IMG/VR virus record: IMGVR_UViG_3300042343_000603
Coordinates: 1-27,612 of that record
DNA: 27,612 bases
Strand: one strand, 5' to 3'
Origin: a virus
The notes under the pieces are model-generated. The model was not told the DNA's origin. It did not search any database and saw only the letters and a list, made by a program, of their open reading frames with translations. A program made the position numbers and the translations under genes. Of this stretch, positions 1,266-27,612 are shown in pieces (position 1 is the stretch's first letter; each line of letters begins with the position of its first letter).

Positions 1266-1297
1266 TTTGGAAAATCCAAAAAGTCTTCTTACCTTTG
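1266..1297 (+). promoter_or_regulatory. Bacteroidota-type promoter with palindromic -33 region
   Basis: TTTG (1266-1269) and TACCTTTG (1290-1297) are separated by exactly 20 bases, matching the Bacteroidota primary sigma consensus TTTG-N19-21-TAnnTTTG. The upstream box lies inside a perfect inverted repeat, TTTGG-AAAAT-CCAAA (1266-1280), which could be an operator. The start of transcription would be near 1303-1306. No protein gene follows directly: the first downstream elements are a terminator hairpin at 1343-1400 and then a structured stretch. The same 15-base palindrome lies at the same place in the promoter candidate at 26239-26270. Confidence 0.8.
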
Positions 1298-1342
1298 TAT
1301 TTGTAAGTTGCTCTGGGAGGGGTTAACGTAAAAATATTAATT

Positions 1343-1400
1343 AGTCCTCGTTACATTTCTCCCCCTTCTCTTTATGAGATTGTTGTAACGGGGATTTTTT
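1343..1400 (+). terminator. Intrinsic terminator or leader attenuator
   Basis: Positions 1343-1355 pair with 1384-1396 in a 13-base-pair stem (core CCTCGTTACA with TGTAACGGGG, two G-U pairs), followed by a T-run ending at 1400. The 28-base loop contains CTCCCCC (1359-1365), whose first five bases can pair with GGGAG at 1315-1319 in the 5' end of the same predicted transcript. So the promoter at 1266-1297 would give an RNA of about 100 nt ending here, or a leader whose 5' G-rich segment modulates termination. It could be a small independent RNA, an attenuator, or the end of the phoH transcript. Confidence 0.7.
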
Positions 1401-1416
1401 ATGCCCTTTAGTTTTA

Positions 1417-1692
1417 CTTCTTCTAAACAAATATAAAAAAGAAGCTCGTATAAGCCGAGCAAAAAATAGTAGATTTAACCAGTGTTGTAAATGTGGCTCT
1501 GTCTTAAGGCTGACAACCACGACTTGCAAGTTTGATAAAACTCAACACTGCTATAAAAAGTAAATCCAACTAAATGAGTTTGAGGAGAGTTGGTCAAGGA
1601 GGTAGGGTCGTTAAATTTGCCTTGAATGGTTTAGGACACCAGGAAATATTTCTGCTTGAGAGTTGCTCTCTTGCAAGGAGTAAAGCCTTTGC
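1417..1692 (+). ncRNA. Candidate structured non-coding RNA, unassigned family
   Basis: This stretch has no convincing ORF on either strand but is packed with complementary segments. By eye I find: CTTCTT 1417-1422 with AAGAAG 1439-1444; GCTCG 1444-1448 with CGAGC 1456-1460; TAGT 1467-1470 plus GATTTA 1472-1477 with TAAATC 1561-1566 plus ACTA 1569-1572; AGTGTTG 1481-1487 with CAACACT 1543-1549, enclosing GTGG/CCAC (1493-1496, 1517-1520) and AGTTT/AAACT (1529-1533, 1538-1542); CCAACT 1566-1571 with AGTTGG 1588-1593; TCAAGG 1594-1599 with CCTTGA 1620-1625; GAGAG 1658-1662 with CTCTC 1666-1670; and GCAAGG 1673-1678 with CCTTTGC 1686-1692. GC is about 40 percent here against about 25 percent in the next two genes. 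It lies 27 bases before a GIY-YIG-like gene. Strand is inferred from the promoter and neighbours. I cannot match it to a known ribozyme, riboswitch or intron. Confidence 0.6.
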
Positions 1693-1719
1693 TATGCAAA
1701 AAATAAAATATATAAAAAT

Positions 1720-2169
1720 ATGATAACATGGAAATTTAAAAACAAAGTAATCAACTCACCACCAGAAAATACTTATGGGTTTGTATATAAGATTACAGAT
1801 AAAGATACAGGTAATTTTTATTACGGTTGTAAATCTTTTTACTCTACAACAAAACCTATCATAAGTAAAAAAAGAGCGAATGAATTATACTCAGGAAAAG
1901 GACGTAAACCAAAAAGAGAAACTAAAGTAAAGGAATCTAATTGGAAAAATTACATATCTAGTTCTAAAATAGTACATACTCTAATAGAAGAAAAAACAAC
2001 TGATAATTTTAAATTTGAAATTATTTCATTTCATCAAACAAAACAAGAGATGCTTTTAAAAGAAGCATATATAATTGCTGGTGAATTTCTTCAATTTAAT
2101 AACAAAATTTTAAACGAATGGGTTAGCGTCAAAGCCTTTAAATTAAAAGATGAATCAAAAAATACATAA
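1720..2169 (+). CDS. GIY-YIG-like endonuclease, putative free-standing homing type
   Basis: This 149-residue basic protein carries a degenerate GIY-YIG core near its N-terminus: YGFVYKITDKDTGNFYYGCK at about residues 19-38, where YGFVY stands for GIY and YYG for YIG. The following segment (ESNWKNYISSSK) resembles the block after the core in phage putative homing endonucleases (known from the T-even-like family). GIY-YIG enzymes cut DNA, often to spread their own gene or a linked intron. Here the gene follows directly on a structured non-coding stretch, an arrangement reminiscent of an RNA element with its own nuclease, but no interrupted host gene is visible: phoH is intact. It overlaps the next gene by 20 bases. 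The family call is fairly secure; the homing role is inferred. Confidence 0.72.
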   Translation: MITWKFKNKVINSPPENTYGFVYKITDKDTGNFYYGCKSFYSTTKPIISKKRANELYSGKGRKPKRETKVKESNWKNYISSSKIVHTLIEEKTTDNFKFEIISFHQTKQEMLLKEAYIIAGEFLQFNNKILNEWVSVKAFKLKDESKNT

Positions 2170-2764
2170 CAGATTAATAGAAGATATCTTTGAACATTTT
2201 AAAAATAAAAATGAAAGAGATAATCAGGAAGTAAAGAAAAGAAGATTTGATAAGTTAAACAATTATGACTTAGAGGAAAATATAAAAAAAACTGAAAGGT
2301 TATTAAATAAAATAGGACAACAAAATGTTCCAGATTTATCTGAATATTTAAAAGAATCACAGAATAATTTTGGAAGACCACAAAAAAATATTTTTTATGT
2401 AGATAGCAAAGATTTTTTTGATAAAAATAATTTCAAAAATAAGTATTCAAATCTCAATAAAGAATCTGTTGAAAAAACAGACGGTCATAAAGAATCAAAT
2501 AACAAACAAGAGTTTGAATTAGATTGGGAATTTATTGAAAGCATGGCTAAAAGAATGGCTAAAAACAAGGTAAAATATGGCAAGGATAACTGGAAAAAAC
2601 CAATGGAGGTTGAACAATTAAAACAAGCTTTATTTAGACATTCTCTTGAAATAATGAAAGGTAACTATCACGATGAAGATAAGCTAGATCATTTAGATGC
2701 TATAGCACTTAACGCAATGTTCATAAAATATCAAATTAAGCATTATGGATTACATAGTAAATAA
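2150..2764 (+). CDS. DUF5664-like dATP/dGTP diphosphohydrolase candidate with long N-terminal extension
   Basis: This is a 204-residue protein. The C-terminal part (about 125-204) fits the DUF5664 / all-alpha NTP pyrophosphohydrolase pattern seen in phages: KYGKDNWKK, then ALFRHSLEIMKGNYHDEDKLDH, then LDAIALNAMF. Members are annotated as dATP/dGTP diphosphohydrolases related to MazG-like enzymes; they would hydrolyse dNTPs, using metal-binding acidic residues. The first 120 residues are highly charged and Asn/Lys-rich with predicted helices and no family I recognise, so this looks like an accessory extension on a short catalytic domain. It overlaps the GIY-YIG gene by 20 bases and a 45-aa gene at its end by 20 bases. 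Its position just before dUTPase supports a nucleotide-pool role; substrate is not shown by the sequence. Confidence 0.65.
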   Translation: MNQKIHNRLIEDIFEHFKNKNERDNQEVKKRRFDKLNNYDLEENIKKTERLLNKIGQQNVPDLSEYLKESQNNFGRPQKNIFYVDSKDFFDKNNFKNKYSNLNKESVEKTDGHKESNNKQEFELDWEFIESMAKRMAKNKVKYGKDNWKKPMEVEQLKQALFRHSLEIMKGNYHDEDKLDHLDAIALNAMFIKYQIKHYGLHSK

Positions 2765-2882
2765 ACTTATTCAAATATTAAGACTGTATCCAAAGTGCAG
2801 TTTTTATTTTATTAAAAAAAAGTTAGCAGAAAATAATATAAATTTAGATAAAAAAGTATTAATAAATAGATTGAAGCAATGA
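2745..2882 (+). CDS. Small 45-residue protein, translationally coupled to dUTPase
   Basis: ATG at 2745 opens a 45-codon frame that reads through the otherwise empty gap between its neighbours and stops at TGA 2880-2882, giving an ATGA overlap with the dUTPase start at 2879. It also overlaps the end of the preceding gene by 20 bases. The product begins MDYIVNKLIQILRLYP, is Lys/Leu/Ile/Asn-rich and is probably helical, with a net positive charge. I recognise no family. The fit to both neighbours is the same kind of overlap used elsewhere in this operon (for example at 3352), which supports it being real despite its length. It could still be a chance frame in AT-rich DNA. Confidence 0.6.
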   Translation: MDYIVNKLIQILRLYPKCSFYFIKKKLAENNINLDKKVLINRLKQ

Positions 2883-3355
2883 TAGTAAAAATTAAAAAAT
2901 TAAATGAACACGCAGTGATTCCATCTTATAGTAAAGATGGTGATGCTGGAATGGATTTAACAGCAATCAGTAAAACATTTGATTCAGATGGTAACGTTGT
3001 ATATGATACAGGTTTATCATTTGAAATACCAAAAGGTTATGTTGGATTGTTATTTCCAAGAAGTTCAAATGCTAAAAAAGATTTAGTATTGACAAATTCA
3101 GTTGGTGTACTCGATAGTGGATATAGAGGAACTGTAATGTTTAAATATAAACCTATTGATTCATTATCATATGAAGAAGAGTTTACAGAGGAAGCTCCTG
3201 ATACAGATGAAGATTTTACAATTAAAATGTATGAAGTTGGAGAAAGAGTAGGTCAAATCATAATTCTACCTTATCCTACAATTGAATTTGAAGAAGTAAA
3301 TGAATTAACAGAAACAAATCGTGGTACAGGAGGCTTTGGTTCAACAGGATTATGA
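2879..3355 (+). CDS. dut: dUTP diphosphatase (trimeric dUTPase)
   Basis: This 158-residue enzyme hydrolyses dUTP to dUMP and pyrophosphate, keeping uracil out of DNA and feeding ThyX with dUMP. All five trimeric-dUTPase motifs are visible: I, DAGMDLTA (22-29); II, PRSS (60-63); III, NSVGVLDSGYRG (73-84) with the catalytic Asp at 79; IV, GERVGQIIILP (about 121-131); V, the Gly-rich RGTGGFGSTGL tail that closes over the active site. Between motifs III and IV is an acidic insertion (EEEFTEEAPDTDED) longer than in minimal bacterial enzymes. The start overlaps the previous small gene by ATGA and the end overlaps the next gene by ATGA, so all three are likely translationally coupled. Confidence 0.97.
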   Translation: MIVKIKKLNEHAVIPSYSKDGDAGMDLTAISKTFDSDGNVVYDTGLSFEIPKGYVGLLFPRSSNAKKDLVLTNSVGVLDSGYRGTVMFKYKPIDSLSYEEEFTEEAPDTDEDFTIKMYEVGERVGQIIILPYPTIEFEEVNELTETNRGTGGFGSTGL

Positions 3356-3576
3356 TAATAAAACAAGTAAGATTAAAAGAATTAAAAGGCATATCAAAAA
3401 ATACTTTAGATAAAGTATTGCTTTACAATATTGGTAAAAAAGAAAACAACTATTGGATATTTCCATGCGTATTAATAGGATATATGTCTCAAGATAATGG
3501 GATAAATACATATAATAATATAATTAGAAATTGTCTAAATAATGGTATATTTTCTTTACAAATCATTAACTCTTAG
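3352..3576 (+). CDS. Hypothetical protein, coupled to dUTPase
   Basis: This 74-residue protein begins MIIKQVRLKELKGISKNTLDK at an ATG that overlaps the dUTPase stop (ATGA, 3352-3355). It contains a basic helical N-terminal part and a more hydrophobic middle (YWIFPCVLIGYM) that is too short and interrupted to call a membrane span. I recognise no family. The ATGA overlap makes translation likely, and it ends the operon segment before a new -7 box at 3593. A role linked to nucleotide metabolism is guilt by association only. Confidence 0.65.
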   Translation: MIIKQVRLKELKGISKNTLDKVLLYNIGKKENNYWIFPCVLIGYMSQDNGINTYNNIIRNCLNNGIFSLQIINS

Positions 3577-3592: not shown

Positions 3593-3600
3593 TACCTTTG
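3593..3600 (+). promoter_or_regulatory. -7 promoter box TACCTTTG
   Basis: TACCTTTG matches the Bacteroidota -7 consensus and lies 51 bases before the start of the next gene, in a non-coding gap. It is identical to the -7 boxes at 1290 and 16938 (reverse). The expected TTTG 20 bases upstream is absent (ACTC at 3569-3572), so this is a half-consensus promoter that may rely on another -33 sequence or an activator. Confidence 0.55.
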
Positions 3601-8498: not shown

Positions 8499-8537
8499 AA
8501 AAAGGGGAACTAAAATTAATTAGCTCCCCTTTTTTTT
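8499..8537. terminator. Bidirectional terminator between converging arms
   Basis: AGGGGA-type arms at 8504-8508 pair with TCCCC at 8525-8529; after one mismatch CTAA (8510-8513) pairs with TTAG (8520-8523). The stem is followed by eight T's on the + strand and preceded by an A-rich run (T-rich on the - strand). It lies between the last + gene (ends 8487) and the last - gene (ends 8570), so it would stop transcription from both arms. Confidence 0.9.
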
Positions 8538-16930: not shown

Positions 16931-16962
16931 CAAAGGTACAATAATAATATTTAATTACCAAA
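16931..16962 (-). promoter_or_regulatory. Bacteroidota-type promoter for the fibre-lysis operon
   Basis: On the - strand TTTG (16962-16959) and TACCTTTG (16938-16931) are separated by exactly 20 bases, the Bacteroidota sigma consensus. It begins 18 bases after the stop end of the giant gene (16980) and lies about 80 bases before the start at 16850; the start of transcription would be near 16924. It probably drives 16850 down to 8570. Confidence 0.8.
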
Positions 16963-16979
16963 TACGTAATAATTTTTTA

Positions 16980-19900
16980 TTATTTCGCTCCTTTCTTCAA
17001 ACCTGTACCAACTAGTGATTGATATTGAAGATATCCATCAACATATTCTTCAGGATCTGAGAACGCTTCTAGATGTCTATACACAGGAACAATTTTTTCA
17101 AATTTTGCACTTATTGTTTCTGAATCTTTACCATCAACAACTGCACCTATAAATTCACCAATTTTTTTAAATGTAAACTGAACTGCTACAGGATTATTAC
17201 TAATTTTTTTAAACTCCTGATATAATTCAGATTGGTTTGTAAAAGGATTATATACACCTAAAGGATTTGATACAGCTATATCTGTATATAGACCATTAGC
17301 TGCTGCAATTAACCATTTTTTTGCAGCTGAATCATCATCATCATCGCCGTCTTCTCCACCTGCAAGTAAAAGAGTTAATATCATCATTCCAATAACACCT
17401 ACAAAGGTTTCAAATGTTGCTCTTTTAAAAGAATACTCTTCTTCAGAAGTCCAACCTTTACTTTGTTTATCTTTTGAAAATATATCGTAAGCAGTTATGT
17501 TTACTCCATATTCTATCACATCTTCTAATATTTTTTTAAAGAACGTTCTATGGAAACCTTCTACGACAACTCCTTTAGAGTAATCTACTTTTTGTTTACC
17601 AAAACGTGCTTTAAGTACTGGATACATGTGTTTTCTAAATGTCATTAATAATCCACCGTACCACTCTCTTTGAATAGCTGTTTTATGTAAGTCAGAATAG
17701 TTACCATGATTTGAACGATTCATCTCATGTAAGTTTCTGATAAACTTAGTTTCATCAAATGATGAAGGGTCGATATTTTCTTTAGTAACTACCCCATTTT
17801 TATCTAAGGTTAAAGCATCCCATAAATTAGTAGCAGTTCCGTCTTTTAATTTTACAGATGTATTTAACATCAGTGCTAATGTTGCAGTTCCTTGAATTTG
17901 ATGCTCAGCTACATGTTGTAAAAAGAAAAGTGAATCTGTACTAAATAATCTTGAGATAGCTGCTTTATCTGATGTCAATCTGTTATAACGATCTCTGAAC
18001 TCACCTTGAATAGCTTGGTAATCAAATAAAACTTGATTAAGTTTACTCTTAGTGTTATTTGCTAAGTCCATTGCATTTTGTGGAACGTTCTTAGTATATA
18101 TTACAGCTGCTTCAGCATATTGCATTTTAGAGTAATATTTATTACCGTTACCTTCTGACAAGTTAACAAAGTTACCTATAGTTAAGTTTCGACTAGTTGA
18201 CATTAGATTACCTGCCAATGAAACAACAGATGTAAGGAAAGTAAATTTCTTTGCTATGTTATTTAAGTTTATATTTAAATTAGCATACTCGTCTGTTTTC
18301 CATCTATTATCGTCATCCATATAGAAGGTGGTAGCTTTATAAATCTCTTCTGGAGTTTTTTTATCAGCTATCATTTTTTTAAGCAATGTTAAATTCTCTT
18401 CATACTTACGAGATTTCCATAAAGTTATATCAACTTGTTTTTGTTTTTCTCCGTAGAATACTCTATCTATAAAATAGTTAAGTTGCTTATTTAAACGATT
18501 TTCATGTTGGTCTTTAGATTTAGGTTTACCTAACATTGAATGCCAAATAACAGAACCATTAGCATCAAGTTCTGGAACTTTTCTTCCATCTATATTTTTA
18601 GTACCATTTGTAAGTAAACGTAAATTTTCAACATTTGCTTGAAGACCTCTTAATGAACTATATCTCAATGCATCCTCTGTAAAACCTGTTATGGTGTGAG
18701 TTAAGTCAAAGTCTATAAGATCGTCTTTTAGCATTCTAAGATATGATGTTTTAATAGATTTATACGTACTTCCATCAGGATTTTCCTGTTGTTGCATCAT
18801 ATCTCTATCTTGACCAACTAGATATGTAAATCCAGTTTTAAGCATTCCTTTTGTTTTACTCCAAGCTGGTGTATTTTTATCTTGTACTTTATTAAAAACA
18901 CTTCTTAGTTTTTGGATTCTGCTTTTATTCTTTTCAATAAATTCATCCTTTAAAACTCCTTGTTGAATAATACCATATTTAAGTTTAGCTTCTCCGAATA
19001 AATTATTAGATGATTCATAATTTGTATATAAAAATCTATACATTTCATCTTTCATCAAGTTTTCAAATTTTTTATTTTTGAATCTTTCTTTATTGTTTAT
19101 TTCCCAATCTTTAATTTTATCAGTTCTTTCAACAGCTAACTCTTGATATTCAGCCCATTCGGCATTAGTAGCTCCCATTGGAGGAGGTACAGGCTTAGCT
19201 AATTTTTCTACGAAATCTTTACGAGCTATCTCGTATTCATCCATATTATATTCTGTATTGAATGCCCAACGCTCAACTAATTTAAATATAGGTTCATTTG
19301 TTTTTTCATCTATAATAATTTTACCATATTCATCTTTTTCTACCTCATATACTTTAGCTTTTCTTAAAAAATTATTTTTAATATATTCAGCTCTAGCTTT
19401 ACTTGTAGTAATACCTTTAGCCTTAAAGTAGTTTTCTCTCATACTTTTTGTAGTAGAAACTAGATGTCCTAAAGCATTTGTATTTTTATTGATTACATCT
19501 GATAAAAGAATAGCTACAGTTGCATTGATAGGATCGTCAGTATTAACTAATGTTCCAAATAAGAAGTCTATTTTATTATTATCTTTACTCGCATTTCTTA
19601 AAAGTTTTGCAAAGCTATCTTTATCTACATATTTACTAGCTCTAAGTGTATCTGATACATTTTTAAGAGCCTCTATTTGTAGTTTATCGAAATATGGAAA
19701 TAACCATTCAACAGCTAATTTTCTCATATCTTGTTCTAGTTCTTTATGTCTAGTAACAGACTCAGCGATAGCTTGTGAATAAGGCATGTACTCTGTAGAG
19801 TACTCAAAGTGTTCAGCGTATTGTTTTAAAAGACTATTAGTAAAGCTTTCATATGTAGCATAATAGTTTCTAAGCATAGAAATATCCCAGTTCAATTCTT

Positions 19901-22900
19901 CAATTTCAGAAGGTGATAATTCTACTTTTAAATTATCTATAGTTGTTCTATTTATACCTTGTACTTTTTTTCTAAATGCTTCCTGTTCATCATTAAACTT
20001 AGTTTTTTCAAATGTGCTTTTCTTTTTATAATCACCAACCATATATTTTCCAATATCCATTGGAACCCATCCGTCTTCAATAAGTTGTTGTTTATTAATT
20101 TCTACAACACCTTTATTTAAACGAATACCATATCTGTTATCATCTTTAAATTCTATTTTAACTCCTGCTTTTGTTAAATTAACAACAAGTGAATTTATAT
20201 AGTTATTGATGTCACCATAATTAATTCTAGTTCTGATATTTTGCATCATTCCTTCAGCTTTTTGTAAAGCTGTGAAACCTACTCTTAATATGTTTACAGT
20301 TGTTTCAACAGAATTTTCTTCGTTTAAATCAGCAGTTAAAGTTTTTAAGTCTGTTAAGTTAGAAACCACACGTTCTTTTACTTCTGGAGTCATTTTAGTT
20401 ACTCTTAATCTTTTCTCAATAGTATGTTCAAGATTTTTAAGTTTACTTCTAAATGAATTTGTAAATACTTCAAGTTCTGTTTTATTTTTTATAGAGTATA
20501 AATCGGACATTTCTTCAAAGCTTTCTTTGTGTGCGTCCATGTTTAATTTATAACCTTGAGCATTAGTTAACCATGCTCCTAATTCATCTAAAGTTGTATT
20601 TAAAGATAAAGCCGATAATACGATTTTAGAATCTATCTCTCTAGTTTTATCATTGTAATAATTTTCAACTTTATCTAAAGTACCTTTAAATTTAGAATAT
20701 GAAGGATATGATTTAAAGTCTAATGATAATTTTTTATTGTTGTTGTCTTGTTTTTGTAATGCCTCATCAACAGCTTTAACTAATTCAATGTTTCCACCTA
20801 CAGCAACTGCTTTATCGTATGCCATAGAAAGAATTTTACTTTCATTAGTTTTAATAAAGTCGTTTCTTTCTTTTTTTATTTCATCGAATGTTATTTCGTT
20901 TTCTTTTAAATACTCTTCGGTAATACCATCTTTAATATTTTTAGACTTTAAAAATAACACATCGCCAACTTCATTAAACCATTTTTTATATTTACCATCT
21001 TCTTTAGTAAATACAGCTTTGTCAATAAACAAACTAACTCCTTCTCCGTTGACATTAAAACTATATGTAGCATTTTCTGAAACAGAAGGGTTTTTATTTT
21101 CTAAATCGGCTTTGATATCTTCTACTAATCCTTTTAATTGTTCTACTGTTATTTGTGGAACTCTTTCTCTAGTCTTAATAACAAAGTCATTAAATTTAAG
21201 TTCAGAACCAAGTTTACCTATTGTTGCAACAACCCATTCTATACCAGATTCATCTAAAATTTTTAAACTTCCTTTTATAGGATTATATTCTATTCCTGCA
21301 ATTTTATCAAATGTTCTAGCATTTTTTCTTTCAGTTGTTTTTTTAAATGATGATATAAAAGAATCTATCGCATTTATAAGTAGATTCCACATATCTTTAA
21401 AAAACGTTGAGTATTTATTTGCAATCTCATCCATTTTTTCTGGTATAACTAACCCAGTTTCAGGATTAATTACCTCATTAACTTTATCTGTAAGGATTCT
21501 TACTAAAACCTCATCATCACGTTGTTCTTTGGTTAAAGATGAATACTCAGGTGCTTTAGAAATTTCTGATATAACCTCTTTATAAAAAGATTTATAATCA
21601 CTTTTCATTTCTTTTATTACATTATCATAAAGTTCTTTATTAGAAGATTTTAATGCAAAAATAAAAGGATGTAAATATTCATGAACAGCTGTAGATACAT
21701 CTGCGTTAGAGAAATTAATCTCTACAACACCTTTATGAAAACGTCCTTTCCAATTTTGGTCAGGGAAGTCTACAATTTTATATTTTATTGTAGGGAACAT
21801 ATCTTGAAGTCTATTCAAAATATTTTTTAAAGCAACTTCTTTTGATGAAACTTCTTTACTTATAGGTTGAATATTTGCTTCATTTATTTTAACAGGAGTT
21901 ACCTCTGAACTATTTACAAATTCATAGTTAGGCTTTCTAGATTGTAATTTATCTAATTCAGCTTGTGCTTCTTCTTCTGTATCAAAAGGTTCTTCAGTAA
22001 CAGGATCTTCATCTTTATCAACAATGTACCAACCAATGTGTTGACTTTCTATTATAGAATACTCATCTGCTTTATTAATAGATTTTAATATAAGTGCTCC
22101 ATTCGGTTTAACAGAAGAAACAATATAATTTTTACCTTTGAATGAAACAATATCTTTAGCCTTTGGTACATATTCACTTGTCGGTGTATCAGCAGAAAGA
22201 GTGCTTGTTTTAAAAGTTGGTTGTATAAAATCAGACATATCAGAAACAGGATAAGTTGATAACTTTTTAGAATCTGTTCCTTTTTCATTTGTTGCCGAGA
22301 AGTTAATAGGACTTGCTATAACATAATAAGAATCACCTATTTTAGTAAAGCTTTTGATTTTATGAGGAGTACCATTTATGTTTACAGCAGTACCTACTTT
22401 ATATCCGTATATTTCAACAATAGGTTTTACTTCTTCTTCTTTAAACTCCTCTACACTAACTGGTTCCTCCACAAAAGATTGTTCCTTTATAGATGAATCT
22501 GTTTTTAAATAATCTATAATATCTTGCTTGTTCCAAAACAATTTATTTTCAGCATAAGGTTTGAAATGAGCTTCGTCTAAAGCTAATGCCCATCTATTGG
22601 TAAATCCTTTATCAAATGCTCCATATAATATAAAGTTACCATTTACTACTATTTTAATAGTAGAATCCATGCTATTTTTTAAAGTACTTATTTTTACTGT
22701 ATTATCTACTAGTACTTCTTCTTTTAAATCTTCTACTGTAATTTCTGGTGTAGTAGCAGGTTGTAAAACATCTTTTGAGAAAAATTCTTTAATAGATGCC
22801 TCATCTGGAAATATATCATTTTCAGCATAAGGTACTGACATCGCTTCGTCTGCAAATAATCTCCATGTAAAAGTAGTATCTTCATCAAATTGTGCAAAAT

Positions 22901-25900
22901 ATTCTGCATTACCTAATGATATTTTTAAACCATTATCTGTTTTAGAAATAGTTACAGAATTTGTTTTAGTTGAAATATCTTGTTTAATCATTTCTTTGAT
23001 TGCATCTTTAGATACTTCAATTACATTTTTAAATGCAGGTGATTCAGCTTCTTCTTTTAAATAATAAATGAACACACCGTCTGCAGCTGGTTCTGCAATA
23101 ACATCTCCTCTACCAAATATATCATTTAATACATCTATAGGATCTTCATTGTTAAACACTCTATCAGTATATAAATTTCTTATTCCTAATGATAATTGTA
23201 AAGGTGAGAAGTTTTTATCTACAACATGAGTTGAGTCAACAAATACAGCATCTTGTGGTAATATAAACAGTTTTTCTTCTACTACGGGTTCTTCTTGAAC
23301 CATTTCTATAGGTTCAACTTTTTGTTCTTTTATTTTTCTTAATAAAGGTGTAATTGATTCATCATATCTATCAAATATTTCTTTTTTCTTTACTTCATCA
23401 TTTTGGTCAGTCATAGCAGTATATTCTGCTTTTTCTTTTGCTCTTAAATCAGCTACTTCTTTTTCTAATTGCTCTACTGTTTTTTCTTCTTGTATAGGTG
23501 ATTGTTCTTTGACTGATGTAAAAAAAGTATTTTCTTTTAGAGGATTATCTTTTATATCCTTCTCTAAAATAGCTATTTCATATTTATTTCTAGCGATTGA
23601 TTCTGTTCTATCTTCTGTAGTATCTTCCTCTAAAAAAGTAACCATTTCTTTGGCTCTTTTTAAAGAAGCTTCTCTAGGGTCTTTATTAAATTCATCTTTA
23701 TATTCATAATTAACACCATCTTTTTCACTATATTCTACTTCGTCATAAATTAAACTTGTAACTTTAGAGGAATCAATTATATTTTGAGTATTATTATCAA
23801 ATTCTTCCAATTCTTTTACCTTATTATCATACTCTGCTATAGCGGCAGTCGTATCAGTTGCATTTGATATTTTATTTTTTGCTTCAAATACAGCATCTGT
23901 TAAAGCTATTCGCTTGTTTGAATATTGTCTATCTGTTGTATTTTCATTTTCTTTTTCTATAGCAGAAGGTCTGTTTACTTTATTAAACTCTACAACTTTT
24001 TTATTAATCCTTTCAAATGAAGTTTCTGTTTCTAAGATAGGTTGCTCTTGAACTTTTACTTCTCCAACAGGAGCTGGTGTTACTTCTTTTGTTTCTTGTG
24101 ATATGAACTCACTACCTAACATAGCAGAATATATCTTACGCATTTCATCGTTTAATTCTATATCTATATCAGAACCAATTATTCCATTATAGATAGTCAT
24201 TAACCAACTAGCAAATGCTTCAAATATAGACTGTAAAGCTGGGTTTGGTGCTTTACCTTCAGCTAAGAATTTTTCAAATCCTCTAGCAAATTTTTCAGAT
24301 GTGTCTGTTGTCCATTCTGCAGTTTTTGCAAAATCTAAAACTACTTGTCTTTCATCTTGTGTTAAATATTTTTCAAACTTATGAGCGGCTTCATGTAAAG
24401 GTGATGAAACATTAGGACTTGTCATTGCGTGAATTATATCTTCGCCTTCTTCTAATATGCCAAATTTAGCATTACCTTTAGAGTAAGTACCAGAAGATTG
24501 GTAAGCCGCTTGTGCTTGTTGAAATAAGGTAGATGGTTTTTTATCTATAACATAAAAGATTGCATCTTCATAATTTTTAAATATTTTAGGGTCTGATGTT
24601 CTAGTACGTTTAGAAATATTTGTTTCATATTCAAGACGATTTGAAAATTCATCTATTTCTTCTTGTGTTAATGTTTGTCTATATTCTGTTGAACGAGCTT
24701 CTACCTCTTCTAATGTATTCATATACATCTCCATATAATCATCAGATGTTAATTGAGATGCTTTTATTAGATGTTGTTCTGCTTTTTTAATATCATTTTC
24801 TGTTATTACTTTATTAACATCATATTCTGCTCTTGACCAATCTAATTCATTTAACTCTTCAATATCTTTAGTAGAAGCTAAAATAGAAGTTTGATTTTCA
24901 TTAGCAGTTTCCATTAAAGATATTAACTTAGTTGTAGCTTCAATATCTTTTTCAACTACTTTTTTATAGGTAACTGTATCAAGTCCTTGTTCAAATCCTT
25001 CTATTAATTGAATAGCATGTTGTATTTCATGCAACAATGTATTCATCATATCTTGAATATCAAAAGAAGGTTGTCCTTTTGTATCATTAGAATTTAAAAC
25101 TATTTCAGCTTTTTTTGAATAAAACCCGTCACCTTGTGTTGTAAAATATCCACGGTATTCATTTTTTTGAAGCGGTTTTGATTTTACTTTTAAATATGCT
25201 AATTCAGGATATGCTTTATACAAAGCATCGTGATATAACAAAGAGGAAAGTGTAGTTCCTGCATTTAATTTTTTTACAAGATCTTCTATTCTAGTAGTTG
25301 AAAATACGTTATCAAATTTGAAAGTAGCGTTTGAGTCTGATATTTCAGAACGTTTTTTACCGTCAATGTTTATGTAAACTTTAGAATTAGGAATTGCTAG
25401 ATTAGTTATTCCTTTTGGTCCAATTGATTGTAATAATGTTTCTAAAGAATTATTTATTTCTTCCATTCTTGAACGTTTATAGAATGTAGATTTATAAATA
25501 GTTTCTTTAGTTACATTTTGACGTTTAGCTATTGTTTCCAATACTTTATCCATAAGGGTTGCAGCAGCCTCATCTTGTGATATTCTTTTACCATCTTTAG
25601 TTTTAAAGACTTTTCTTAAACCAAAAGCACTTCTTAAAATACGTGTTAAGCTAAAAGCATCAGTGGCTTTTACTGGTTTTTCTTGAGCAATGTTTATTTC
25701 AAGTTGTTTTTCGTTTTCAAGTCTAGTCTTAGTTGTTCTCCAAGCATTGTTTATAATTGCAAGTCTATTCTTTAATTCTTTAGCAGTTTCAATCCCAGTT
25801 AATCCAGCTTGTTTTCTAGTTTCAGCATCGGATAATCTACTATTTTTAGTGATGTCTTTTTTAAGAAAGTTTCTAAGTTTAACTAAATCAGGAGATGATT

Positions 25901-26114
25901 TTAAAGCTTTTTCATATTTAGCTTTTTCCATTTCCATTTTTCTATCAAACTTTGCACTTATTTTTTTAACTGCTTCTAAAAACTCTTTTCCTATTTTTGT
26001 AATAGGAGTATCGACCTTCTTTTCTAAAGAAAGTTTTTCTAGTTCACCACTTAATAATAAGTTAGCAAACTCATCATTAGAATATTTTTGTCCATTATAT
26101 ATTATACAGCTCAT
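16980..26114 (-). CDS. Giant multi-domain virion-type protein with three HExxH motifs
   Basis: This 3044-residue protein (about 330 kDa) resembles the very large 'polyvalent' proteins of phages, likely packaged in the virion and ejected with DNA. Three zinc-peptidase-like motifs are visible: HEIQH at 362-366 followed by AIQLIEGFEQG, HEAAH at 574-578, and HEYLHP at 1478-1483. After the second, SEKFARGFEKFLAEGKAPNPAL and an IELNDEMRKIYSAML block match a module known from such proteins. Long charged coiled-coil segments fill much of the rest; residues 1078-1193 hold a duplicated segment. The C-terminal 850 residues include NHGNYSD and FRKHMYPVLKARFG (about 2825), then one membrane span (about 2900-2919, FVGVIGMMILTLLLAG) and an Asp run (2922-2928). 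There is no signal peptide. I see no DxDGD-type RNA-polymerase motif. The start ATG shares a base with the upstream stop (TAATG), so translation is probably coupled. Confidence 0.85.
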   Translation of the reverse strand: MSCIIYNGQKYSNDEFANLLLSGELEKLSLEKKVDTPITKIGKEFLEAVKKISAKFDRKMEMEKAKYEKALKSSPDLVKLRNFLKKDITKNSRLSDAETRKQAGLTGIETAKELKNRLAIINNAWRTTKTRLENEKQLEINIAQEKPVKATDAFSLTRILRSAFGLRKVFKTKDGKRISQDEAAATLMDKVLETIAKRQNVTKETIYKSTFYKRSRMEEINNSLETLLQSIGPKGITNLAIPNSKVYINIDGKKRSEISDSNATFKFDNVFSTTRIEDLVKKLNAGTTLSSLLYHDALYKAYPELAYLKVKSKPLQKNEYRGYFTTQGDGFYSKKAEIVLNSNDTKGQPSFDIQDMMNTLLHEIQHAIQLIEGFEQGLDTVTYKKVVEKDIEATTKLISLMETANENQTSILASTKDIEELNELDWSRAEYDVNKVITENDIKKAEQHLIKASQLTSDDYMEMYMNTLEEVEARSTEYRQTLTQEEIDEFSNRLEYETNISKRTRTSDPKIFKNYEDAIFYVIDKKPSTLFQQAQAAYQSSGTYSKGNAKFGILEEGEDIIHAMTSPNVSSPLHEAAHKFEKYLTQDERQVVLDFAKTAEWTTDTSEKFARGFEKFLAEGKAPNPALQSIFEAFASWLMTIYNGIIGSDIDIELNDEMRKIYSAMLGSEFISQETKEVTPAPVGEVKVQEQPILETETSFERINKKVVEFNKVNRPSAIEKENENTTDRQYSNKRIALTDAVFEAKNKISNATDTTAAIAEYDNKVKELEEFDNNTQNIIDSSKVTSLIYDEVEYSEKDGVNYEYKDEFNKDPREASLKRAKEMVTFLEEDTTEDRTESIARNKYEIAILEKDIKDNPLKENTFFTSVKEQSPIQEEKTVEQLEKEVADLRAKEKAEYTAMTDQNDEVKKKEIFDRYDESITPLLRKIKEQKVEPIEMVQEEPVVEEKLFILPQDAVFVDSTHVVDKNFSPLQLSLGIRNLYTDRVFNNEDPIDVLNDIFGRGDVIAEPAADGVFIYYLKEEAESPAFKNVIEVSKDAIKEMIKQDISTKTNSVTISKTDNGLKISLGNAEYFAQFDEDTTFTWRLFADEAMSVPYAENDIFPDEASIKEFFSKDVLQPATTPEITVEDLKEEVLVDNTVKISTLKNSMDSTIKIVVNGNFILYGAFDKGFTNRWALALDEAHFKPYAENKLFWNKQDIIDYLKTDSSIKEQSFVEEPVSVEEFKEEEVKPIVEIYGYKVGTAVNINGTPHKIKSFTKIGDSYYVIASPINFSATNEKGTDSKKLSTYPVSDMSDFIQPTFKTSTLSADTPTSEYVPKAKDIVSFKGKNYIVSSVKPNGALILKSINKADEYSIIESQHIGWYIVDKDEDPVTEEPFDTEEEAQAELDKLQSRKPNYEFVNSSEVTPVKINEANIQPISKEVSSKEVALKNILNRLQDMFPTIKYKIVDFPDQNWKGRFHKGVVEINFSNADVSTAVHEYLHPFIFALKSSNKELYDNVIKEMKSDYKSFYKEVISEISKAPEYSSLTKEQRDDEVLVRILTDKVNEVINPETGLVIPEKMDEIANKYSTFFKDMWNLLINAIDSFISSFKKTTERKNARTFDKIAGIEYNPIKGSLKILDESGIEWVVATIGKLGSELKFNDFVIKTRERVPQITVEQLKGLVEDIKADLENKNPSVSENATYSFNVNGEGVSLFIDKAVFTKEDGKYKKWFNEVGDVLFLKSKNIKDGITEEYLKENEITFDEIKKERNDFIKTNESKILSMAYDKAVAVGGNIELVKAVDEALQKQDNNNKKLSLDFKSYPSYSKFKGTLDKVENYYNDKTREIDSKIVLSALSLNTTLDELGAWLTNAQGYKLNMDAHKESFEEMSDLYSIKNKTELEVFTNSFRSKLKNLEHTIEKRLRVTKMTPEVKERVVSNLTDLKTLTADLNEENSVETTVNILRVGFTALQKAEGMMQNIRTRINYGDINNYINSLVVNLTKAGVKIEFKDDNRYGIRLNKGVVEINKQQLIEDGWVPMDIGKYMVGDYKKKSTFEKTKFNDEQEAFRKKVQGINRTTIDNLKVELSPSEIEELNWDISMLRNYYATYESFTNSLLKQYAEHFEYSTEYMPYSQAIAESVTRHKELEQDMRKLAVEWLFPYFDKLQIEALKNVSDTLRASKYVDKDSFAKLLRNASKDNNKIDFLFGTLVNTDDPINATVAILLSDVINKNTNALGHLVSTTKSMRENYFKAKGITTSKARAEYIKNNFLRKAKVYEVEKDEYGKIIIDEKTNEPIFKLVERWAFNTEYNMDEYEIARKDFVEKLAKPVPPPMGATNAEWAEYQELAVERTDKIKDWEINNKERFKNKKFENLMKDEMYRFLYTNYESSNNLFGEAKLKYGIIQQGVLKDEFIEKNKSRIQKLRSVFNKVQDKNTPAWSKTKGMLKTGFTYLVGQDRDMMQQQENPDGSTYKSIKTSYLRMLKDDLIDFDLTHTITGFTEDALRYSSLRGLQANVENLRLLTNGTKNIDGRKVPELDANGSVIWHSMLGKPKSKDQHENRLNKQLNYFIDRVFYGEKQKQVDITLWKSRKYEENLTLLKKMIADKKTPEEIYKATTFYMDDDNRWKTDEYANLNINLNNIAKKFTFLTSVVSLAGNLMSTSRNLTIGNFVNLSEGNGNKYYSKMQYAEAAVIYTKNVPQNAMDLANNTKSKLNQVLFDYQAIQGEFRDRYNRLTSDKAAISRLFSTDSLFFLQHVAEHQIQGTATLALMLNTSVKLKDGTATNLWDALTLDKNGVVTKENIDPSSFDETKFIRNLHEMNRSNHGNYSDLHKTAIQREWYGGLLMTFRKHMYPVLKARFGKQKVDYSKGVVVEGFHRTFFKKILEDVIEYGVNITAYDIFSKDKQSKGWTSEEEYSFKRATFETFVGVIGMMILTLLLAGGEDGDDDDDSAAKKWLIAAANGLYTDIAVSNPLGVYNPFTNQSELYQEFKKISNNPVAVQFTFKKIGEFIGAVVDGKDSETISAKFEKIVPVYRHLEAFSDPEEYVDGYLQYQSLVGTGLKKGAK
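22546..22833 (-). repeat. Internal duplication inside the giant gene
   Basis: A 15-base string TTTTCAGCATAAGGT occurs at 22546-22560 and again at 22819-22833, 273 bases (91 codons) apart and in frame, with flanking similarity. The encoded segments are W(R/A)L..DEA....PYAEN..F.....I..(F/Y)(F/L), at roughly residues 1078-1102 and 1169-1193. This is a divergent tandem repeat of a small domain of about 90 residues. Confidence 0.7.
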
Positions 26115-27612
26115 TATTTACAGTTGGTCCTTTTAATTGTGTTATTATTTAATAATTGTGGAAGTATTGTTTGCAGTTCTTTTTGTAATAGTCTTGCTTT
26201 AGCAATTCCTTCTATGTCGTTGATGTCATAATCTTTTGCAAAGATACGAACAATATTTGGATTTTCCAAATTTTCGCCTTCTTTATTTAGGTTATTTATT
26301 ATTTGAAATGTGGCATTACGACCACTCTTAGAAAGTTCTTTCAATAATCCTTTTTGAATAGCTTTATTATGCATAGCTACTGCCCCTTCGCCTGCTGACA
26401 CAGTAGATAGTATAGTAATTTTTTTATTTTTTAAATAATTTATTAATGCTTCAAACATTTTAGAACCTTTACCTTTACCTACTTCATTTGCAGTAATACC
26501 ATCAATTCTAAAGTCTGTTGAAGAAGTCATGACCCCAGCTATTAATCCGTCTTCTGTTTTAAATTCATATAGCTCACCGTCCTCTACTTTTGATATAGAA
26601 GGTTCGCCTAAATATGTAGATGTAGTTGGGGCAGGTTCTACGATAGGCGCGGTTGGTTGTTTAGATAATTCTTCTAACTCAACGTCATATTTAGCTTCAA
26701 TAAATAATTTATAAATATTATGTAAAGCATCTACATTACCTTCTTCTTTAGCTTGATTTAATTGTAAAATAAACTCATTAGCAATATTTTTTAATTTTTC
26801 ATCTTGGTACTTATCAGGATGTATTTTTTTAACATAATTTTTATAAATATCGTTAGCCTTTTTTAAATCTATTTCATCTTGTGTACCATATCCATATTTT
26901 TTAAATACATCATTGATTTTTGTTCTACTAGTTTTTTCTGTTTTGTCATAACCCATTTTTTCAGCAAATTTATCAAATGCAGATTTAAATCCAGATACAA
27001 AAGAAGAAACTTCTTGTTTTTTAGTAACAGGTATTACGGCTAATTCTTGATTTTTTTTATTTAATAATTCAGCTTTTTTAGCTTCTATATCAGATTGAGT
27101 AGATTTTGTTTCTTCTGACGTATCTTCAAAAGATTCTCTAGGTGCAATGGTCATTTTAATTTTATTATAAAAATAAGGAGTTGTTGCAACTGAAAGAGTA
27201 TCCATATAATCATTAAAGACTGCTTGTTCGTCATCTTTAATATTCTTTTTAAAACTATTTATTGTAATTTTAGAAATATCAAAAGTATCTCTTTTTTGAT
27301 TTTCTAAATCTATATTAATAAAAGATATAAATTCGTTTAAATCGTCTGCTGTTTCAGCTATATCTGTTAAGTCAATAGTTATTACGTTTTGAACACCTTG
27401 TGATATTTTTTCTTGATTTATATCTAAAGATACATTACCTTTCATATCCATTGCAAACTCATAGGATAGACCGTTTCCTTTAGGGAGAATACCTTCAGCC
27501 ATAAATATAGTTGGAAGCATGGTTGCTACTTTTTCTGTATCTTTTGCTTTTAAAGCTTGGTACAAATCTTCTATTGTATCAACATTTAAGTTTATAGGTC
27601 TAGCAACAACTC
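26114..27612 (-). CDS. Large protein with J-domain and GNAT-like domain, 5' end outside the window
   Basis: The frame is open to the right window edge; a TTG at 27563-27565 can be read as a start, but codons further upstream continue (VARPINLNVDTIEDLY), so I treat the gene as truncated at its N-terminus. The middle carries a DnaJ-type J-domain (about 26750-26960): DIYKNYVKKIHPDKYQDEK with the HPDK-like HPD signature, ending in a helix NEFILQLNQAKEEG. The C-terminal part (about 26330-26560) has a GNAT-like acetyl-CoA-binding loop: ITANEVGKGKGSKMFEALINYL followed by TVSAGEGAVAMHNKAIQKGLLKE. No signal peptide can be assessed. It ends TAATG with the giant gene, and a candidate promoter for the latter lies inside it. 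It might recruit host Hsp70 and acetylate a target, or be a co-ejected virion protein; neither is shown. Confidence 0.72.
   Translation of the reverse strand, partial: VVARPINLNVDTIEDLYQALKAKDTEKVATMLPTIFMAEGILPKGNGLSYEFAMDMKGNVSLDINQEKISQGVQNVITIDLTDIAETADDLNEFISFINIDLENQKRDTFDISKITINSFKKNIKDDEQAVFNDYMDTLSVATTPYFYNKIKMTIAPRESFEDTSEETKSTQSDIEAKKAELLNKKNQELAVIPVTKKQEVSSFVSGFKSAFDKFAEKMGYDKTEKTSRTKINDVFKKYGYGTQDEIDLKKANDIYKNYVKKIHPDKYQDEKLKNIANEFILQLNQAKEEGNVDALHNIYKLFIEAKYDVELEELSKQPTAPIVEPAPTTSTYLGEPSISKVEDGELYEFKTEDGLIAGVMTSSTDFRIDGITANEVGKGKGSKMFEALINYLKNKKITILSTVSAGEGAVAMHNKAIQKGLLKELSKSGRNATFQIINNLNKEGENLENPNIVRIFAKDYDINDIEGIAKARLLQKELQTILPQLLNNNTIKRTNCK
26239..26270 (-). promoter_or_regulatory. 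Candidate Bacteroidota-type promoter for the giant gene, inside the upstream gene
   Basis: On the - strand TTTG (26270-26267), 20 bases, then TATCTTTG (26246-26239) match the TTTG-N20-TAnnTTTG consensus. The box starts the 15-base palindrome TTTGGAAAATCCAAA (26270-26256), identical to that at 1266-1280. It lies within the end of the upstream coding region, about 125 bases before the giant-gene start, so it could add independent expression. A coincidence in coding DNA is possible, but the shared palindrome and spacing argue against it. Confidence 0.55.

What the first reader, a model, noticed from the sequence alone, without database searches (positions are those of the whole stretch)
1417..1692. 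Dense, GC-elevated structured RNA candidate directly before a GIY-YIG-like gene
At least nine complementary segment pairs, many perfect 6-7 bp, nest into a three-way-junction-like unit (AGTGTTG/CAACACT enclosing two hairpins) flanked by adjacent stems that could stack (GATTTA/TAAATC, CCAACT/AGTTGG, TCAAGG/CCTTGA). Local GC is about 40 percent against about 25 percent in the next genes, typical of structured RNA in AT-rich DNA. It lies in the only stretch over 300 bases without a protein gene, and I recognise no known class. Association with a nuclease gene suggests a mobile RNA-plus-nuclease element or a cis-regulatory RNA.
Basis: partly seen in the sequence, partly recalled or inferred. Interest (0 to 1): 0.7.

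Follow-up and report, generated by a model that had tools for sequence, protein, structure and literature searches.

The report
Phage attenuator leader plus knotted RNA
Downstream of a phoH gene, a freshwater phage that probably infects Bacteroidota bacteria carries a conserved, structured RNA that matches no family in the Rfam library, preceded by a promoter and a switch-like terminator; it looks like a genuine but narrowly distributed new phage RNA whose job is still untested.

Summary
The structured RNA is real, but part of the observation and most of the interpretation need correcting. Energy alone does not prove it (z = -1.1). A second phage species (L002/L003) does: between the two arms of helix P1 only 1 of 130 bases differs, while 26% of phoH third codon positions differ. 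All 7 changes in the core (1471-1625) keep pairing in one + strand model. Two helices carry two compensatory pairs each (1469-1479/1610-1620 and 1444-1448/1456-1460); nulls gave two such helices in 0/1500 and 1/1656 trials. G-U pairs point to the + strand. The proposed GATTTA/TAAATC stem is broken in the relative; GATTTAAC pairs with GTTAAATT instead, and a 6-bp stem (1594-1599/1620-1625) would make it a pseudoknot. The unit is larger than reported: a Bacteroidota-type promoter (1266-1297), a ~100-nt leader with mutually exclusive terminator and antiterminator folds (1303-1402), then the knotted domain (~1420-1692). The nuclease is not its partner: in the relative two other ORFs follow the RNA. 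No Rfam match and no third homologue was found. Best reading: an attenuator-type phage leader with an orphan structured domain; signal and target unknown.

The parts
1266..1297 (+). Bacteroidota-type promoter TTTGG-N19-TACCTTTG (inside palindrome TTTGGAAAATCCAAA)
   Evidence: TTTGG-N17-21-TAnnTTTG occurs 3 times in the window against 0.185 expected in mononucleotide shuffles; conserved in the L002 virus. TAnnTTTG consensus: PMC5682007.
1303..1402 (+). Leader RNA1 (~100 nt) with two mutually exclusive folds
   Evidence: terminator fold z = -2.7 (window) and -3.8 (L002); antiterminator fold before the 3' half is made z = -1.6 and -4.0.
1315..1363 (+). Antiterminator helix 1315-1323/1355-1363 (extends to TAACG/CGTTA)
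   Evidence: both changes in L002 keep pairing (G-U to G-C, G-U to A-U).
1345..1400 (+). Intrinsic terminator: 11-bp stem 1345-1355/1384-1394 followed by T6
   Evidence: invariant in L002.
1401..1443 (+). Fully conserved linker (43/43); holds the 5' arm of possible closing helix P0 (1421-1428/1629-1636) and a 12-codon frame ATG...TAA (1401-1436)
   Evidence: conservation; P0 in consensus fold; no covariation.
1444..1460 (+). Hairpin H0, GCTCG/CGAGC
   Evidence: two fully compensatory pairs (G-C to A-U, C-G to U-A).
1469..1620 (+). Long-range helix P1: 1471-1479/1610-1618 (9 bp), extendable to 1469-1479/1610-1620 (11 bp)
   Evidence: two compensatory pairs plus one consistent change; on the - strand the full helix breaks.
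1481..1549 (+). P2 (AGTGTTG/CAACACT, 1481-1487/1543-1549) enclosing P3 (1493-1496/1517-1520 and 1501-1503/1512-1514) and P4 (1529-1533/1538-1542)
   Evidence: P3 has one consistent change (G-C to G-U); P2 and P4 invariant, hence unproven.
1566..1593 (+). Hairpin P5 CCAACT/AGTTGG
   Evidence: invariant, unproven.
1594..1625 (+). P6 TCAAGG/CCTTGA (1594-1599/1620-1625); crosses P1, so it would form a pseudoknot
   Evidence: one consistent change (G-C to G-U).
1626..1694 (+). 3' domain hairpins; conservation ends sharply here
   Evidence: 65/69 identical to 1694, then 11/25.
1720..2169 (+). SegE-like GIY-YIG gene (next gene in the window, not a conserved neighbour of the RNA)
   Evidence: PF19835, 1e-20; for the different neighbour in L002.

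Best explanation
A + strand transcript starts about 1303 at a host-type (Bacteroidota) promoter. Its first ~100 nt can fold either into an intrinsic terminator or into an antiterminator that uses the same CGTTACA...CTCCC segment. When polymerase passes, it makes a ~275-nt structured, probably pseudoknotted RNA domain (RNA2, ~1420-1692) and then the downstream phage genes (GIY-YIG, dATP/dGTP-diphosphohydrolase-like, dUTPase). The locus therefore most likely works as an attenuator-type leader that sets how much of RNA2 and of this operon is made; RNA2 either tunes the operon from its 5' region or is released as a phage RNA. Shown: conservation, strand, helices P1 and H0, two alternative leader folds that both persist in two species, promoter match. 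Inferred: transcription, read-through, regulation. Unknown: the signal, and the target of RNA2.
For: Compensatory changes and nulls. Far fewer changes than at synonymous sites: 1/130 between the P1 arms against 56/217 phoH third codon positions. Promoter (consensus in PMC5682007). Terminator and antiterminator folds both strong, z to -4.0 in L002, with both antiterminator changes pairing-neutral. In the window this is the only TTTGG-type promoter between phoH and a weaker TACCTTTG box at 3593, so genes 1720-3576 probably lie on this transcript. The RNA ends about 21-27 nt before whichever gene follows.
Against: Only two distinct sequences are known, so most stems (P0, P2, P4, P5) have no covariation support. 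Folding energy of RNA2 is ordinary. RNA1 could simply be a terminated small RNA and not a switch. Nothing shows read-through. The gene right after the RNA differs between the two species, which weakens gene-specific cis control.
Confidence: 0.5

Rival explanations
1. Two separate trans-acting phage small RNAs: RNA1 (~100 nt, own promoter and terminator) and RNA2 (~275 nt, made by leaky read-through or an unrecognised phage promoter in the invariant 1401-1443 block, then processed), acting on host functions rather than on the downstream genes.
For: RNA1 has a complete promoter-to-terminator unit; 1401-1443 is 43/43 conserved although mostly unpaired; the downstream gene is not conserved.
Against: No promoter motif or terminator recognised for RNA2; RNA2 abuts the next start codon by about 21-27 nt in both species.
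Confidence: 0.33
2. Mobile RNA-plus-nuclease element (intron-like or guide-RNA-like) with the GIY-YIG gene.
For: Adjacency in the window only.
Against: Adjacency lost in L002; no intron or guide-RNA family hit in Rfam; no interrupted gene seen; nuclease is SegE-type.
Confidence: 0.04
3. Decayed or unannotated protein-coding DNA; the stems are incidental.
For: Frames of 40-60 aa are open in both species, e.g. - strand 1341-1529 and a + frame with CCKCG...C...HC.
Against: 1 change in 130 bases between the P1 arms, where about 11 synonymous ones would be expected from the phoH third-position rate; much of the - strand frame is scrambled between the species; the changes are compensatory.
Confidence: 0.04

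Closest known systems
Intrinsic-terminator attenuators and riboswitch-type leaders (e.g. B. subtilis rplJL leader, PMC4538822, seen as an abstract)
   Same: Promoter, leader with mutually exclusive antiterminator and terminator, operon behind it
   Different: No ligand, protein or leader peptide identified; a second large structured domain lies after the terminator; found only in two phages
Large ornate RNAs of phages and bacteria (GOLLD, ROOL, OLE; PMC12286853, abstract)
   Same: Highly conserved, complex, intergenic RNA of unknown cellular role
   Different: Much smaller (~275 nt; OLE is ~600 nt), no Rfam match, no tRNAs nearby
manA and wcaG motifs in T4-like cyanophages (PMC2864571)
   Same: Phage-borne structured RNA near metabolic genes
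   Different: No Rfam match; another host group
Phage HK022 put RNA and P4 c4 antisense RNA (own knowledge; c4 is listed in PMC2864571)
   Same: Phage RNA tied to termination control
   Different: No Rfam match to c4; no evidence of action on RNA polymerase

Membership tests
Any Rfam 15 family | Score above the family gathering threshold | tested here: not met
   0 hits in window; best 26.8 bits against gathering 51, a eukaryotic snoRNA on the - strand, chance
Transcription attenuator leader | Promoter upstream of the leader | tested here: met
   (sequence match only)
Transcription attenuator leader | Intrinsic terminator before the operon, and an alternative antiterminator sharing its 5' arm | tested here: met
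   (predicted folds)
Transcription attenuator leader | Signal-dependent read-through | not testable with these tools
   Needs transcription assays
Group I intron | Family model match and an interrupted gene | tested here: not met
   (no intron family match); no split gene seen; P1 and P6 cross, but their spacing does not fit P3/P7 as I know it
Guide RNA of an RNA-guided nuclease (HEARO/omega-RNA, RAGATH-18 type) | Stable linkage to its nuclease gene | tested here: not met
   Adjacency to GIY-YIG broken in L002
GOLLD / ROOL / OLE | Family covariance model match | tested here: not met
tRNA / tmRNA | ARAGORN or Rfam match | tested here: not met
6S-flavo RNA (RF01685) | Covariance model match | tested here: not met

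The most novel reading that the evidence does not exclude
A new class of pseudoknotted phage RNA, coupled to a switchable terminator, that senses a signal or acts on a host factor during infection of Bacteroidota hosts.
Probability: 0.3. Interest if true: 0.6.

Novelty: new member of a known kind. Interest (0 to 1): 0.42.

Why it matters
Regulatory RNAs of Bacteroidota phages are little known (own knowledge). This locus gives a compact, testable case: a host-type promoter, a leader with two conserved alternative folds and an orphan structured RNA, all in under 430 bases. If the RNA acts in trans, or the leader responds to a phage or host signal, it would be a new way for such phages to time nucleotide-metabolism genes.

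Tried and rejected
(1) Folding energy as proof: z about -1.1, rejected as evidence. (2) - strand RNA: the full helix P1 breaks on that strand, although H0 followed by a T-run looks like a - strand terminator. (3) GATTTA/TAAATC stem: broken in L002. (4) CGAC(1520-1523)/GTCG stem: my pairing check was off by one base; with 1607-1610 it would compete with P1; not supported separately. (5) Homologue searches: blastn in phages and plasmids, exact patterns in IMG/VR and GTDB contigs, covariance models R1-R3 over relatives found by PhoH and ribonucleotide reductase and many of their whole records. All gave only the two species; weak hits that I looked at (L186 inside an open coding frame; L263, L115 and L274) look like chance. 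(6) A phylum-wide scan was centred on a MAG whose group has genomes of about 0.5-2 Mb and is probably not the host phylum, so it says nothing about the host. (7) Coding-remnant idea rejected.

Full report
What was checked. The window is a 27.6-kb uncultured phage record. Genes on the left are on the + strand: PhoH (578-1234), a SegE-type GIY-YIG protein (1720-2169), a dATP/dGTP-diphosphohydrolase-like protein, dUTPase, a protein with weak ribonucleotide-reductase matches, and Thy1. Between PhoH and GIY-YIG lie 485 bases without a credible gene.

Energy. Several folds lie within about 2 kcal/mol. Energy does not decide the matter.

Relatives. PhoH and GIY-YIG searches in IMG/VR gave a record identical to the window here (L001) and one other species in two samples (L002, L003) that carries the same stretch at 92% identity. 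Next-nearest phages (PhoH 83% or less, RNR about 54-63%) have other genes after PhoH and no detectable trace of the RNA.

Comparison. In PhoH 56 of 217 third codon positions differ; in RNA2 1471-1625 only 7 of 155 bases do, and between the P1 arms 1 of 130. All seven changes preserve pairing in one + strand model: P1 1471-1479/1610-1618 (A-U to G-U, G-U to U-G, U-A to C-G), P3 (G-C to G-U), P6 (G-C to G-U). The hairpin at 1444-1460 changes G-C to A-U and C-G to U-A. Placing the same 17 substitutions at random gave a helix with two compensatory pairs in 6 of 1500 trials and two such helices in none; rotating the pattern to keep its clustering gave 43 and 1 of 1656. The G-U states make the full P1 incompatible with the - strand. 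With one pair of species this is strong for P1 and H0, suggestive for P3 and P6, and silent for P0, P2, P4 and P5. P1 and P6 cross, so if both form the RNA is pseudoknotted; their 3' arms are nearly contiguous (1610-1618, 1620-1625) and could stack (inference).

Upstream. TTTGG-N19-TACCTTTG at 1266-1297 fits the Bacteroidota consensus TAnnTTTG (PMC5682007); the extended motif occurs three times in the window against 0.185 expected. It should start RNA near 1303 (inference). The next 100 nt end in an 11-bp terminator stem followed by T6. Before the terminator's 3' arm is made, the same sequence is predicted to fold into a 14-bp antiterminator; two changes in L002 keep it (G-U to G-C, G-U to A-U), and in L002 both states are far more stable than shuffles (z = -3.8 and -4.0). 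The two states exclude each other because they share 1349-1355. This is the anatomy of an attenuator, though a small RNA with a terminator would look much alike.

Downstream. In L002 the RNA is followed by ORFs of 64 and 77 aa and only then by GIY-YIG. So the nuclease is not a fixed partner. Conservation ends at about 1694, some 25 nt before the window's start codon and about 20 nt before the one in L002.

Interpretation. I favour a leader transcript with an attenuator followed by a structured domain in the 5' region of a phage operon (0.5), with a pair of trans-acting phage RNAs as the main rival (0.33). They cannot be separated without expression data. The signal and target are unknown.

Known families. 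No Rfam family matches, nor tRNA/tmRNA. In layout it works like attenuator leaders, but signal-dependence is untested. It is not an intron or a nuclease guide RNA by the tests above. I file it as a new orphan member of the broad kind 'phage structured RNA or leader'.

Noticed in passing
window 26239-26270 (- strand), 16931-16962 (- strand), 3593-3600 (+): Further Bacteroidota-type promoter motifs; the one at 26270 shares the palindrome TTTGGAAAATCCAAA with the RNA promoter, perhaps a phage regulatory site.
   Followed up: partly
window 1401-1436 (+): 12-codon frame ATG CCC ... TAA (MPFSFTSSKQI) directly after the terminator, identical in both species.
   Followed up: no
window 1596-1603 (+): Perfect Shine-Dalgarno-like AAGGAGGT inside RNA2, not followed by a sensible start codon; Bacteroidota rarely use such sites (own knowledge).
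   Followed up: no
window 1460-1436 (- strand): Hairpin H0 read on the - strand is followed by TTCTTTTTT and looks like a terminator; the stem covaries and the T-run is kept in L002, so it may also stop opposing transcription.
   Followed up: partly
L002 7558-8477: The related phage has an HNH-like gene (not tested against a library) with its own TTTGG-type promoter between the dATP/dGTP-diphosphohydrolase-like gene and dUTPase, absent from the window.
   Followed up: no
window 16980-26114 (- strand): A single 3044-aa open reading frame, a third of the window; not examined.
   Followed up: no
window 8499-8534: Strong terminator between the + strand and - strand gene blocks (AAAAAGGGGAGC...GTTCCCCTTTTT).
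   Followed up: no
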